Shown in pieces: positions 4,499 to 58,690 of a stretch of 64,000 nt of DNA. Positions within the stretch are counted from its first letter, which is position 1. Every line of letters begins with the position of its first letter. Source of the DNA: Bacteroidales bacterium (GTDB taxonomy: Bacteria > Bacteroidota > Bacteroidia > Bacteroidales > F082); NCBI GenBank assembly GCA_017530365.1, contig JAFXMK010000006.1, positions 1-64,000 of the forward strand. Direction: 5' to 3'. A program made the translations under genes and the position numbers. Below the pieces are notes generated by a model. It saw only the letters and a program-made list of their open reading frames with translations. It made no database searches and was not told the origin of the DNA.

Positions 4499-6113
4499 AT
4501 TCCATCTTAACAGTCCGTAGATCCAACAGATTGGTAGGATTGCCTCCCAAGCCTTTCACCCGCAAGTTCACAAAGCGTAGAACTTCATCGTAAAACAAAG
4601 GCACCACTGGAGCATCCAACATCATCAAGCTGTCCATCTCGGCATAATAGGAAGCTCGCAACTCATCATCCGAACAAGCCATCGCCTTGTCGTAAAGACG
4701 ATCGTATTTCACGTTGGAATAATGCGAATAATTGGGGCCATCAGGCGAGAAATTGGAGGTCGTGAACAACGAAAGATAGTTCTCTGCGTCAGGATAATCG
4801 GCAACCCATGAAGCACGAAAAAACGAAAGGCTGCCGTTGGATCTCATACTACGCACAGTAGCCGGCGGCATCACCTCCATCTTGCACTTCAGTCCGATTT
4901 GTTCAGCCTGCGACTGCACGAACTTTCCAATATCAGCATACTCAGCTGTTGTGGAGAGATTCAAAGTATAACCCTCAAGCCGGTTCTCCTTCACCAGACG
5001 CTGAGCTTCCTTGAGGTCATAATCGTAGCCAATGCTGTCGCGATGCCCAGGCAATCCAGCGGGAATCATGCCCCCTGTGGCAGGAATGCCAATGCCATTA
5101 CGGAGATAACGGAGCATCTTTTCACGATCAATACACAAGTTCACCGCCTGACGCAAAGCGCGTGATCTATCCACACCCAAAGTGTCGTTGGAATCAATGA
5201 AAAAACTGATGTACTCGGTATTCAGGAAGGGTCCTGTAATAAGCGCTATCTTGTCTTCATACTTCTGTCGCAACTCACCATCATAGGTCAATAATTCATC
5301 TTTATAACGTGCGTCAATGCCCGACATAAAGTCAAACTTGCCTTTGATGAACTCCAAGAAAGCCACCTGCCTATCAATAAGAAAGCTGATGGAGACGGCA
5401 TCAAGATAAGGCAACCTTTCCCCTACAGAGTCCATCTCAAAATAAGTTGGATTTTTGCGGAAAACCAGCTTCACACCTTCGTTCCAATACTGAAAATGGA
5501 ACGGTCCGGTGCCAATCGGATGACTACGGAAAGCGTCACCGTAATACTCCACCGCCTCCTTAGGAACAATGGAAGCGTATGTCATGGAAAGGATGCCCAA
5601 AAACGGGGGAAAAGGCTTTGAGAGCTTGACTTGAAACGTACTATCGTCAAGGGCTTGAAAAGCATAATGTCCATCATCGTGCGCCACTGAGGCGAAGATC
5701 CATGATCCTGGAGCGTTCAAGCTTTTATCTACGACACGATTAAACGAATAGCAGACGTCCTCTGCGTTGACGACACGGCCTTCTGGGATACATTCATCTG
5801 CATGGAAACGGACATCACGGCGAAGATGGAACGTATAAACCGTGCCATCATCACTGATCTCCCATGACCGCGCGATCCGAGGCACCACGTTCATCTCCTC
5901 GTCGAGCGCCACCAAGCTGCTGAAGAGCTGGTTGCAAGCCCAGATATGAGGCAAGTCCTTGGCATAGATCGGATCCAGCGTCAGAATGCCCGCCGACTCA
6001 TTGTATTTGAAGATGGACAAGCCTTCGTTGGGATCCTCTCTCTTCCCGCAAGAAAAGAGACCAAACACCATAAGCAGTGTCAATACCCCCAATTTCAGTT
6101 TTCCACTTTCCAC
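4497..6113 (-). CDS. Peptide/oligopeptide ABC transporter substrate-binding lipoprotein (SBP family 5)
   Basis: A 538-residue family 5 extracellular solute-binding protein (DppA/OppA type). The N-terminus is a lipoprotein signal with lipobox LFSC, so the protein should be tethered to a membrane. Typical family features are present, such as RSWEISDDGTVYTFHLR and PIGTGPF. It presumably captures peptides, but no permease or ATPase genes of the transporter lie beside it. The frame opens right after the in-frame TGA of lon. The best start is a GTG at 6113, because the only early ATG would cut the signal peptide. That GTG lies inside a heptamer array that follows lon, and the 9-bp gap suggests cotranscription with lon. 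Exact start is less sure than the family. Confidence 0.85.
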   Translation of the reverse strand: MESGKLKLGVLTLLMVFGLFSCGKREDPNEGLSIFKYNESAGILTLDPIYAKDLPHIWACNQLFSSLVALDEEMNVVPRIARSWEISDDGTVYTFHLRRDVRFHADECIPEGRVVNAEDVCYSFNRVVDKSLNAPGSWIFASVAHDDGHYAFQALDDSTFQVKLSKPFPPFLGILSMTYASIVPKEAVEYYGDAFRSHPIGTGPFHFQYWNEGVKLVFRKNPTYFEMDSVGERLPYLDAVSISFLIDRQVAFLEFIKGKFDFMSGIDARYKDELLTYDGELRQKYEDKIALITGPFLNTEYISFFIDSNDTLGVDRSRALRQAVNLCIDREKMLRYLRNGIGIPATGGMIPAGLPGHRDSIGYDYDLKEAQRLVKENRLEGYTLNLSTTAEYADIGKFVQSQAEQIGLKCKMEVMPPATVRSMRSNGSLSFFRASWVADYPDAENYLSLFTTSNFSPDGPNYSHYSNVKYDRLYDKAMACSDDELRASYYAEMDSLMMLDAPVVPLFYDEVLRFVNLRVKGLGGNPTNLLDLRTVKME

Positions 6114-6125
6114 TTTTCGCTTTCA
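6088..6125 (-). repeat. Heptamer array after lon stop
   Basis: On the minus strand, 7-nt units AAGCGAA, AAGTGGA, AAGTGGA, AAACTGA, AATTGGG begin directly after the lon TGA. The GTG start of the next gene (6113) sits inside the array. It is one of the weaker arrays, with fewer stop triplets. Confidence 0.6.
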
Positions 6126-56579: not shown

Positions 56580-58661
56580 ATGGAAAACAAGTATGAATCA
56601 TTGAACCGTTACGCCAAGAACTTGAACGAATTGGCGAAGAACGGCAAGCTCGACCCTGTGATAGGTCGAGACGAGGAGATACGGCGTGTGCTGCAGATCC
56701 TGTCGCGCCGTACGAAAAACAACCCTATTTTGATCGGCGAGCCTGGTGTCGGCAAGACCGCCATCGTGGAAGGCCTCGCCCAGCGTGTCGTCAACGGCGA
56801 CGTGCCGGAAAACCTGAAGCGTAAGATGGTGTTTTCGCTTGACATGGGCGCCTTGATCGCTGGTGCCAAGTACCAAGGCGAATTCGAGGAACGTCTGAAG
56901 AGCGTCATCAAAGAGGTGGTTGACAGCTCCGGCGACGTGGTGCTGTTCATCGACGAGATCCACACCCTTGTCGGTGCAGGCGCCACCGGCGGTGCCATGG
57001 ATGCCGCCAACATCCTGAAGCCTGCCCTGTCGCGTGGTGAGTTGCAATGCATCGGCGCCACCACCTTGAAGGAATACCAACAGTATTTCGAGAAAGACAA
57101 GGCTTTGGAACGTCGTTTCCAGATCGTGATGGTGGACGAGCCTGACGAAGCCTCGGCCATCTCCATCCTTCGTGGTCTGAAGGAGCGTTACGAGAACCAT
57201 CACCACATCCGTATCCTCGACGAAGCCATCGTGGCCGCCGTGCAACTCTCCGTTCGTTACATCTCCGACCGTTTCCTCCCCGACAAGGCCATCGACTTGA
57301 TCGACGAAGCTGCTGCCCGTCTGCGGCTGCAAATCGACTCAGTGCCGGAAGACCTCGAGAATGTGGAACGCAACATCCGACAACTTGAGATCGAACGCGA
57401 GGCATTGAAACGCGAGAACGACACCAAGAAGGTCAACGAGTTGACCCAAGAGCTGGACAAACTCAATGCACAGAAAACCGAGATCAAGGCAAAATGGGAG
57501 AAAGAACGCCATTTCGTCGAGATCATCCAGAAGGAGAAAAACAACATCGAGCAATACAAGCATCAGGCCGCTGTGGCCGAACGCGATGGTGACTACGGCC
57601 GTGTCGCAGAGCTGCGCTATGGCAAGATCCGCGACGCAGAAGCTGCCATCGAGAAGGCCAAAGCCGACTTGCAGCAAGCGCAAGGCGACCATCCGTTGAT
57701 CGATGAGGAGGTGTCTTATCAAGACGTGGCCGAGATCGTGTCGCGTTGGACGGGCATTCCCGTGAAGAAGATGATGCAAAGCGAGCGCGAGAAACTCCTC
57801 AACCTGGAAAACGAGCTGCACAAGCGTGTCGTTGGCCAAGACGAGGCCATCCACGCCGTCTCCGACGCCATCCGACGCAGCCGTGCCGGATTGCAGGACG
57901 CCAAACGGCCAATCGGCTCTTTCATCTTCATGGGAACCACCGGCGTCGGTAAGACAGAGTTGGCCAAAGCCCTGGCCGAGTTCCTGTTCGACAACGAGAA
58001 CAACATGGTGCGTATCGACATGTCGGAATACCAAGAACGTCACACCGTCTCGCGTTTGATCGGTGCGCCTCCAGGATATGTGGGGTACGAAGAGAGTGGA
58101 CAACTCACCGAGGCCGTAAGGCGTAAGCCCTATTCCGTCATCCTTCTTGACGAGATCGAGAAAGCGCACCCCGACGTCTTCAACATCCTGCTGCAAGTGC
58201 TCGACGATGGACGACTCACCGACAACAAGGGCCGTACCGTTGACTTCAAGAACACCATCATCATCATGACCTCCAACGTCGGCGCAGGATTGAAGGATCC
58301 CGATGCGGTGATGAACGAACTGCGTCGTGTGATGCGACCCGAGTTCCTGAACCGTATTGACGACATCATTATCTTTGATGACTTGAGTGAAAGCCAAATC
58401 GCCGAAGTGGTAAGGATGCAGTTCAACCGCGTGAAGAAAATGCTCGCCGAAAACAGTATCAGCATCGATATCACCGACGAAGCAGTCGATCTCATCGCTC
58501 ACCAGAGCTATGACCCGCAATACGGCGCCCGTCCGGTGAAACGTATGATGCAACGCGAGTTGCTGAACGAACTCTCAAGGATGATCCTTGCCGACGAGGT
58601 TGACAAGACCAAGCCCATCACGGTGACCGTTCGCGACGGCAAACTCCACTTTGTCAACTAA
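56580..58661 (+). CDS. clpB: ClpB-type disaggregase lacking the N-terminal domain
   Basis: A 693-residue Hsp100 ATPase. It begins MENKYESLNRYAKNLNELAKNGKLDPVIGRDEEIRR, directly at NBD1. Walker A1 is GEPGVGKTA (about 55), Walker B1 VVLFIDEIHTLVGAG, the coiled-coil M-domain at about 255-375, Walker A2 GTTGVGKTE (about 455), and the C-terminal domain follows. The M-domain identifies ClpB, which resolves aggregates with DnaK, rather than ClpA/C. Usual ClpB is ~860 residues with a ~150-residue N-domain; the 162-bp upstream gap cannot hold it. E. coli makes a similar short form from an internal start. Upstream inverted repeats recall those at lon. Confidence 0.93.
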   Translation: MENKYESLNRYAKNLNELAKNGKLDPVIGRDEEIRRVLQILSRRTKNNPILIGEPGVGKTAIVEGLAQRVVNGDVPENLKRKMVFSLDMGALIAGAKYQGEFEERLKSVIKEVVDSSGDVVLFIDEIHTLVGAGATGGAMDAANILKPALSRGELQCIGATTLKEYQQYFEKDKALERRFQIVMVDEPDEASAISILRGLKERYENHHHIRILDEAIVAAVQLSVRYISDRFLPDKAIDLIDEAAARLRLQIDSVPEDLENVERNIRQLEIEREALKRENDTKKVNELTQELDKLNAQKTEIKAKWEKERHFVEIIQKEKNNIEQYKHQAAVAERDGDYGRVAELRYGKIRDAEAAIEKAKADLQQAQGDHPLIDEEVSYQDVAEIVSRWTGIPVKKMMQSEREKLLNLENELHKRVVGQDEAIHAVSDAIRRSRAGLQDAKRPIGSFIFMGTTGVGKTELAKALAEFLFDNENNMVRIDMSEYQERHTVSRLIGAPPGYVGYEESGQLTEAVRRKPYSVILLDEIEKAHPDVFNILLQVLDDGRLTDNKGRTVDFKNTIIIMTSNVGAGLKDPDAVMNELRRVMRPEFLNRIDDIIIFDDLSESQIAEVVRMQFNRVKKMLAENSISIDITDEAVDLIAHQSYDPQYGARPVKRMMQRELLNELSRMILADEVDKTKPITVTVRDGKLHFVN

Positions 58662-58690
58662 CCCCAACTCCTCACTCCTAACTCCTCACT
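58660..58690 (-). repeat. Heptamer array after trkH
   Basis: On the minus strand AGTGAGG, AGTTAGG, AGTGAGG, AGTTGGG encode the trkH C-terminus VRS and its stop, and reach the clpB stop on the other strand. Confidence 0.8.

What the first reader, a model, noticed from the sequence alone, without database searches (positions are those of the whole stretch)
6088..58690. Dispersed 7-nt-period arrays placed at gene ends, always stop-bearing on the sense strand
At least fifteen gene ends carry arrays with a 7-nt period but different unit sequences (AGTTAGG/AGTGAGG, AAAAGAT/AAAAGTT, AAAGGTT, TGTAAAC, TGTTAAC/TGAAAAC, AATTAAG, AAGTAAG). Sites: 6088, 11749, 14070, 20501, 21763, 33575, 34582, 35088, 38402, 40316, 45754, 47451, 48017, 51055, 58660. 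In each, the A/G-rich strand is the sense strand of the gene that has just ended, and nearly every unit has TAA, TAG or TGA. As 7 leaves remainder 1 modulo 3, uniform arrays give stops in all three frames within three units; mixed AGTTAGG/AGTGAGG arrays need about five units. Different units with the same period and position argue for a shared process rather than one transposable sequence. Heptanucleotide repeats are known in cyanobacteria (STRR), but this stop-bearing, 3'-end-linked form looks different. Role (all-frame translation stop, transcript end, recombination product) is inference.
Basis: partly seen in the sequence, partly recalled or inferred. Interest (0 to 1): 0.85.

Follow-up and report, generated by a model that had tools for sequence, protein, structure and literature searches.

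The report
Heptamer-repeat insertions at gene ends
Short stretches of 7-letter repeats sit at the ends of many genes in this bacterium; they look like tiny, sometimes hairpin-shaped inserts that come, go and change their sequence quickly, and their stop codons seem to be a by-product rather than their purpose.

Summary
The observation largely holds. All 15 listed sites show period-7 sequence at a relaxed cut-off, 10 of 15 at a strict one. In 864 kb of the own genome period 7 exceeds every other period tested, and arrays crowd at gene 3' ends with the purine-rich strand as sense. But 24 of 103 arrays lie inside genes, and gene-end arrays without any stop on the purine strand are just as strictly oriented (18:0), so a stop function is not supported.

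The gene-end, sense-strand placement is not new: Rehm et al. 2015 (PMC4692102) report it for Xanthomonas and Nostoc heptamers. Added here: many unrelated units, also without G-runs, obey it; unit families differ at 12 of 65 orthologous sites of a near relative; opposed array pairs are purine-arm-first in 30 of 30; one loop of ileS holds heptamer arrays in 11 of 26 readable genus members, and other inserts or none in the rest. Best reading: small insertion elements written again and again into permissive sites, their strand set by purine-first anatomy and selection. The birth step is inferred.

The parts
6100..6123 (-). array GTGGAAA, at the stop of the gene called at 6123-8618 (-); no stop codon on its sense strand
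11765..11796 (+). array AACTGTA/AACTGCA, five AACT cores; overlaps the stop of the gene ending at 11772
14070..14095 (+). purine arm AAAAGAT of a hairpin; overlaps the stop of the gene ending at 14078
14113..14139 (-). pyrimidine arm (purine strand is -) of the same hairpin, next to the stop of the convergent gene 14141-14593
20502..20546 (-). array AAAAGAT/AAAAGTT at the stop of 20540-21760 (-)
21774..21791 (-). weak array AAGAATT at the stop of 21783-22238 (-)
   Evidence: below the strict cut-off
33576..33597 (+). array AGTGAGG/AGTTAGG at the stop of the gene ending at 33577
   Evidence: below the strict cut-off
34576..34612 (+). array AATTAAG between co-directional genes; G050 and G020 have GTGAGGA units here, G053 no array
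35087..35117 (+). purine arm AGTTAGG/AGTGAGG of a hairpin; supplies the stop of 34605-35099
35129..35160 (-). pyrimidine arm of the same hairpin; overlaps the stop of 35159-35599 (-)
38402..38437 (+). purine arm AGGTTAA of a hairpin at the stop of the gene ending at 38404; absent in G020, G052, G013
38452..38481 (-). pyrimidine arm of the same hairpin at the stop of the convergent gene called at 38480 (-)
40320..40337 (+). short AGTTAGG/AGTGAGG stretch, about two and a half units
   Evidence: below the strict cut-off; not
43208..43228 (-). ATTTAAA stretch not in the finding; 82 nt from the upstream stop, antisense by base content
45758..45781 (-). array AGTTAGG/AGTGAGG at the stop of 45781-46740 (-)
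47449..47474 (+). array AGAAGTA/AGAAGAC/AGAAGCA at the stop of the gene ending at 47456
   Evidence: below the strict cut-off
48019..48057 (+). array AAAACTG/TTAACTG between the stop at 48020 and an ordinary terminator-like hairpin
51060..51076 (-). short AGTGAGG array at the stop of 51058-52476 (-)
   Evidence: below the strict cut-off
58667..58690 (-). array AGTGAGG/AGTTAGG at the stop of 58678-60180 (-)

Best explanation
The arrays belong to the known class of bacterial heptanucleotide repeats (STRR-like), and in this genus they behave as short insertion elements. A typical element is about four and a half units: five copies of a constant 4-letter core with 3-letter spacers that vary, either alone or as a hairpin of two arrays with the purine arm first. 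Elements are gained, lost and replaced at places that tolerate an insert: gene junctions and loops inside proteins. Shown: gain or loss, another unit family at the same site in a near relative, one hairpin present whole in one genome and absent in another, in-frame presence at a recurrent site in ileS, purine-first polarity of paired arrays. Inferred: the gene-end place and the sense strand follow from this anatomy and purifying selection, since only the junction spares the protein and a purine-rich start after a T (T+AA, T+AG, T+GA) makes a stop at once. Also inferred: new elements arise by template switching onto arrays elsewhere in the genome, snap-back copying making the second arm.
For: Against G050, 65 own-genome clusters have both flanks: 43 same family (unit distance 0-1), 12 another family (distance 2-4), 10 without a detected array; 23 of the 43 differ in unit number. 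A 68-nt hairpin is in G050 and not in G000, flanks 96% and 99%. At 35087-35160 both arms change family together: AGTKAGG in G000/G050, ACGGAAA in G020, GTGGAAA in G053, GGTGAAA in G004, none in G013, G052, G010, G040. In ileS 11 of 26 readable loci hold heptamer arrays of different units at one place. 30 of 30 opposed pairs are purine-first, 28 of 30 of one family, about 9 expected, also outside convergent gaps (5 co-directional, 3 in genes). Of 117 single arrays 10 have a partial complement downstream, 0 upstream. Stopless arrays obey the orientation, 18:0. The stop codon most often ends 1-2 nt inside the array, 49 of 145.
Against: No birth was seen at a junction with clear target duplication or donor. 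Local sequence at 21 strict empty sites does not match the unit beyond chance (175 of 2000), so no microhomology is shown. Seven-nt length changes and clustering in some families (AGGT, AGAA in G000; cores AACT and AAAG, which lump families) fit slippage too. Purine-first polarity is also the majority among other stems (88:22). Orthologous sites were pooled in several counts; genes were called by a home-made script.
Confidence: 0.5

Rival explanations
1. Ordinary heptamer microsatellites: polymerase slippage in place makes and extends the arrays; purifying selection removes them from genes and promoters. This is the explanation that the papers cite from Mrazek.
For: Copy number differs by whole units at 23 of 43 same-family sites. 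GAGT arrays in named, mostly other phyla are strongly clustered by spacer (438 of 624 neighbours alike, 142 when dealt out between arrays; the loci were picked with a pattern that fixes part of the spacer, and species are mixed). AGGT, and AGAA in G000, are moderately clustered; cores AACT and AAAG are clustered between arrays (51 of 151 against 8.4; 20 of 39 against 7.3).
Against: GAGT neighbours in this genus are alike no more than chance (58 of 167 against 54.7), in G050 less than chance (24 of 80; 13 of 2000 within-array shuffles as low). Slippage does not give another family at the same site, paired arms of one family, or a length mode at 31-33 nt.
Confidence: 0.2
2. Selected transcription terminators: hairpin arrays end transcripts between convergent genes, and single arrays are worn or half terminators.
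For: 20 of 30 opposed pairs lie in convergent gaps; three window hairpins fold at -23.5 to -46.5 kcal/mol, z -5.7 to -9.0; other stems share the purine-first lean (88:22). Rehm et al. report that transcripts start or stop in their quadruplex-forming heptamers more often than in their control repeats (PMC4692102, section 15).
Against: Most arrays are single and cannot pair (117 singles). Purine-first array pairs also lie in co-directional gaps, inside genes and in ileS, where a terminator would harm. At 48019 an ordinary terminator-like hairpin follows the array. Relatives lack arrays at several of the sites.
Confidence: 0.18
3. A transposase-moved palindrome (REP/REPIN type, Y1 or RAYT enzyme).
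For: Hairpin form, gene-end and in-frame placement, Y1_Tnp matches in 42 of 60 genus genomes including G000, G050 and G020; REP-like palindromes share the ileS site.
Against: No conserved end sequence was seen. G001, G052, G054 and G067 have many AGAAG arrays (30, 40, 14 and 44 pattern matches) and no Y1_Tnp match; they are drafts of 73-90% completeness.
Confidence: 0.07
4. All-frame translation stop cassette.
For: 69 of 148 near-stop arrays have stops in all three frames and in 114 of 145 the stop codon ends inside the array.
Against: 18 of 148 have no stop on the purine strand and keep the orientation; the stop excess over shuffled units is small and not special to the sense strand; arrays occur inside genes.
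Confidence: 0.03

Closest known systems
GGGAATC and GGGGA(C/T)T heptamer repeats of Xanthomonas and Nostoc (Rehm et al. 2015, PMC4692102; abstract, sections 14-16 and passages read)
   Same: Within 50 bp of the stop on the sense strand, overlapping it in part; rare in divergent gaps and in genes; inverted pairs; preference for four units; same gene context kept while length and sequence vary.
   Different: One G-rich unit per organism, explained by quadruplexes. Here several units in one genome, also without GG, follow the rule (61:2 near stops), units are swapped at sites, and one site is inside ileS.
TAACTGA heptamer repeats of Beggiatoaceae, cyanobacteria and some Bacteroidetes (MacGregor 2015, PMC4679880; abstract and passages)
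   Same: Seven-nt direct repeats in gaps, stops in all frames on one strand, some overlapping an upstream stop; the AACTG arrays of this genome resemble them.
   Different: There mostly placed just before start codons and read as translation control; related heptamers are rare as repeats. Here many units and 3'-end placement.
Cyanobacterial STRR (Mazel et al. 1990 seen only as a reference; passages of PMC2670836)
   Same: 7-bp tandem repeats between genes, sometimes hairpins, function unknown.
   Different: GAGT arrays of named loci, many cyanobacterial, are uniform and can be long (up to 33 cores); here short and mixed in GAGT.
REP palindromes and Rickettsia palindromic elements (PMC3733652; passages; in-frame insertion of the Rickettsia elements is recalled)
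   Same: Short hairpins at gene ends and inside proteins; REP-like palindromes occupy the same ileS loop in other species.
   Different: They have a conserved sequence with a GTAG or CGTC tag; the arrays share only period, polarity and length.

Membership tests
Bacterial heptanucleotide repeats (STRR-like) | tandem units of 7 nt, dispersed in many gaps | tested here: met
   79 arrays of period 7 against 0-14 for other periods; 103 arrays listed
Bacterial heptanucleotide repeats (STRR-like) | made by slippage of the unit (neighbouring units alike) | tested here: inconclusive
   GAGT and AGAT not clustered, AGGT and part of AGAA clustered; copy number varies by units
Gene-end, sense-strand heptamers of the Rehm type | purine-rich strand sense near the stop | tested here: met
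   co-directional near-stop 83:6 (pooled genus); 53:8 in G050 alone
Gene-end, sense-strand heptamers of the Rehm type | G-runs able to form quadruplexes | tested here: not met
   78 arrays have no GG on the purine strand and show the same orientation (61:2) and length mode
Gene-end, sense-strand heptamers of the Rehm type | preferred number of units near four | tested here: met
   length mode 31-33 nt, 120 of 469
REP / REPIN elements | conserved palindromic sequence with GTAG or CGTC end | tested here: not met
   unit families differ by up to 4 of 7 letters at one site; arms show no common sequence
REP / REPIN elements | a Y1 (RAYT) transposase in the genome | tested here: inconclusive
   present in 42 of 60 genomes; absent in array-bearing drafts G001, G052, G054, G067
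Intrinsic terminators | hairpin at the transcript end | tested here: inconclusive
   strong fold at three window pairs; most arrays are unpaired
Intrinsic terminators | transcripts end there | not testable with these tools
   no RNA data held

The most novel reading that the evidence does not exclude
A dedicated writing process exists in this genus: it extends a purine-rich strand at a DNA 3' end in 7-nt steps (constant core, loosely chosen spacer) for about four rounds, often snaps back to make the pyrimidine arm, and rejoins. The arrays would be bacterial counterparts of interstitial telomere-like repeats, written at breaks or stalled forks. This would account for purine-first polarity, the typical length, mixed spacers and the free choice of unit.
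Probability: 0.1. Interest if true: 0.85.

Novelty: new variant of a known kind. Interest (0 to 1): 0.52.

Why it matters
Heptamer repeats are long known in bacteria without an agreed origin. Here a near pair of genomes shows many gains, losses and unit swaps, and one protein loop is filled with different repeats in different species of a genus, so the origin becomes testable by comparison. The data also speak against quadruplexes and against a translation stop as the general reason for the gene-end placement.

Tried and rejected
Stop-codon filter as the sole cause of orientation: rejected (stopless arrays 18:0). Avoidance of pyrimidine-rich (Rho-prone) transcripts: not favoured, because a convergent array lies nearer the gene for which it is purine-sense although it is pyrimidine-rich for the other; not tested directly. 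Local seed at the junction: a first permutation test looked positive (6 of 2000), but three of its 24 'empty' sites still held worn arrays; the 21 strict sites give 175 of 2000. The likeness of ileS arrays to the native AAGTTGAAA was seen by eye only. Match of the two hairpin arms beyond family: no different from other arrays of the family (mean 18.9 against 18.1). Purine-first polarity as unique to arrays: weakened by the control, other stems 88:22 against 28:0. Y1 transposase: not required on present evidence. Rfam at gathering scores: one tRNA in the window and nothing else. Earlier reports in Prevotella or Bacteroidetes: searches in a library of open-licence papers gave only the papers cited.
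Full report
What was read. The window is G000:C37:1-64000 of a 2.67-Mb draft in 50 contigs. I read the window and 800 kb more of the same genome, called genes with a home-made script and scanned for lag-n self-matches. 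Gene starts from that script are rough; stops are what matter here.

Period. At score 12, 79 arrays have period 7 (37 intergenic, 20 at gene edges, 22 in genes). The other periods from 4 to 15 give 0 to 14, the 14 being period 14; shuffles give none at that score. At score 11 there are 103 arrays. All 15 listed sites show period 7 at a relaxed cut-off, 10 at the strict one.

Place and strand. 46 arrays are in co-directional gaps (38 purine-sense, 8 not), 28 in convergent gaps (24:4 by the nearer gene), 5 in divergent gaps, 24 inside genes (10:14), for 31.0, 9.5, 24.0 and 794 kb. With G050, G020 and ten other genus members added, the bias is limited to arrays that overlap or lie within 15 nt of a stop: co-directional 83:6, convergent 55:4; further away there are 4 sense and 9 antisense. 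Orthologous sites are pooled there and are not independent. In 1.18 Mb of G050 alone the co-directional counts are 53:8 near and 7:4 far. In 145 arrays the stop codon most often ends 1 or 2 nt inside the array (49 of 145). Of the 114 with the stop end inside the array, 52 have it within the first 3 nt, 24 expected if the frame were random. A T followed by two purines of the array then makes the stop.

Stops. Of 148 near-stop arrays 18 have no stop on the purine strand and 69 have stops in all three frames; units with a stop 0.78 against 0.68 for shuffled letters, and 0.31 against 0.13 on the other strand. The stopless 18 are all purine-sense. So stops are not what sets the orientation.

Inside genes. 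The clearest case is ileS (TIGR00392, 1017 bits, cut-off 621), where a GAGTKAG array is read in frame as LGVRSEELGVG. I searched 60 genus genomes (59 matched) and fetched 30 loci; the loop could be read in 26, four did not fit the search expression. Eleven hold heptamer arrays: G000 and G050 GAGTKAG; G020, G053 and G067 AGTTKAG; G054, G023, G064, G073 and G072 a purine-rich array followed by a pyrimidine-rich one of like unit; G010 a purine-rich array followed by one of another unit. Ten hold other palindromes (G066, G071; G052; G040, G002, G049, G007, G012, G022; G058, which is REP-like). Four have a short loop (G013, G061, G004, G044) and G060 is unclear. These classes were made by eye. No 3'-end function can explain this site.

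Turnover. Against G050, 65 own-genome array clusters have both flanks: 43 with the same family, 12 with another, 10 without a detected array (two of the printed ones, 20502 and 43208, still look like worn arrays); 23 of the 43 differ in unit number. Examples: AAAAGAT against ACTCCTC at 14070-14139, AATTAAG against GTGAGGA at 34576, AGATAAA against AACTGCC at C1:61591. At 35087-35160 both hairpin arms are AGTKAGG in G000 and G050, ACGGAAA in G020, GTGGAAA in G053, GGTGAAA in G004, and absent in G013, G052, G010, G040; G023 has a long AGATAAA array that drifts into other units. A 68-nt hairpin is present in G050 and absent in G000.

Anatomy. Lengths peak at 31-33 nt (120 of 469 at a loose cut-off), which fits five cores of 4 nt and four spacers of 3 nt. 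Near-stop and in-gene arrays share the 31-34 nt mode, 47 of 148 and 26 of 48. Arrays with no GG share orientation (61:2) and mode (24 of 78), arrays with three or more GG give 61:5 and 44 of 113; quadruplexes are therefore not the general cause. Spacers follow loose rules (GAGT+KRG, AGGT+KAR, AGAA+GNN, AGAT+AAR). Neighbouring GAGT spacers are alike 58 of 167 times against 54.7 when dealt out between arrays; AGAT 20 of 55 against 28.4; AGGT 62 of 136 against 37.4; AGAA 34 of 184 against 23.9; the mixed cores AACT and AAAG are clustered, 51 of 151 against 8.4 and 20 of 39 against 7.3. By genome, G050 GAGT is alike less than chance (24 of 80 against 33.1; 13 of 2000 within-array shuffles as low), while AGGT in both genomes and AGAA in G000 are clustered. 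In loci of named genomes GAGT arrays are strongly clustered (438 of 624 against 142), as slippage predicts, though those loci were chosen by a pattern that fixes part of the spacer.

Hairpins. All 30 opposed array pairs within 60 nt are purine-first and 28 of 30 share the family, about 9 expected; one further pair is in tandem. 20 are convergent, 5 co-directional, 3 in genes, 2 at edges. Other perfect stems in intergenic DNA are purine-first 88 to 22, array stems 28 to 0, so part of the polarity is general. Of 117 single arrays 10 have a partial complement downstream and 0 upstream. Three window pairs fold strongly; a single array at 11765 does not.

Distribution. In those loci, under 15 nt from a stop, co-directional arrays are purine-sense 13:3; over 60 nt they are 4:17; convergent arrays lie on the purine-sense side 29:7; 24 were at locus edges and not placed. 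AGGTKAR arrays occur in 12 of 60 genus genomes, AGAAGNH arrays in 23 of 60, the own included in both.

Known work. Rehm et al. 2015 (PMC4692102; abstract, sections 14-16 and passages) describe the same placement and strand, a four-unit preference, inverted pairs and kept gene context for one G-rich heptamer each in Xanthomonas and Nostoc. MacGregor 2015 (PMC4679880; abstract and passages) describes TAACTGA repeats mostly before starts and cites Mrazek for heptamer slippage. What is added here is unit freedom under one geometry, family swaps, a hairpin gained or lost whole, unclustered unit order in part of the families, and the ileS site.

Mechanism. I read the arrays as short insertion elements under purifying selection. 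The birth step is not shown. Template switching onto other arrays with snap-back copying would explain shared families, mixed spacers and paired arms, but junction microhomology was not demonstrated. A Y1 transposase is not needed on present evidence, with the caveat of incomplete drafts.

Noticed in passing
window 33603-33626 and 40343-40366 (+): A second dispersed element, CCGTAGGGNTTNAAGCTNGGTAGA, stands right behind two of the arrays; 8 copies in G000, 15 in G050, 1 in G020. In G050 four copies follow each other at 28-nt steps (C4:164696-164803), four times seven.
   Followed up: partly
L239 (G053), G050 ortholog of window 6100, ileS locus L307 (G058): REP-like palindromes of the CGTCATTGCGAG...CTCGCAATGACG type at gene ends and, as a variant, in the ileS loop; they resemble the CGTC-tagged REPs of PMC3733652.
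   Followed up: no
G053 and G050 orthologs of arrays: Another palindrome family, GTAGAGACG...CGTCTCTAC, stands at sites where a relative has a heptamer array.
   Followed up: no
L089-L205 (named genomes): Over 60 nt from a stop, co-directional GAGT arrays are mostly purine-antisense (17 against 4), like the upstream, antisense placement that Rehm et al. report near starts.
   Followed up: partly
G000:C1:143703-144047 and C44:97633-97977: Two Y1_Tnp (IS200/RAYT-type) matches in the own genome; 42 of 60 genus genomes have at least one.
   Followed up: partly
G000:C22:77652-77730 and G050_C1 ortholog: A hairpin whose purine arm has only GAG spacers and whose other arm has TAG and TGG spacers in both genomes: the arms share the family but keep different spacers.
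   Followed up: no
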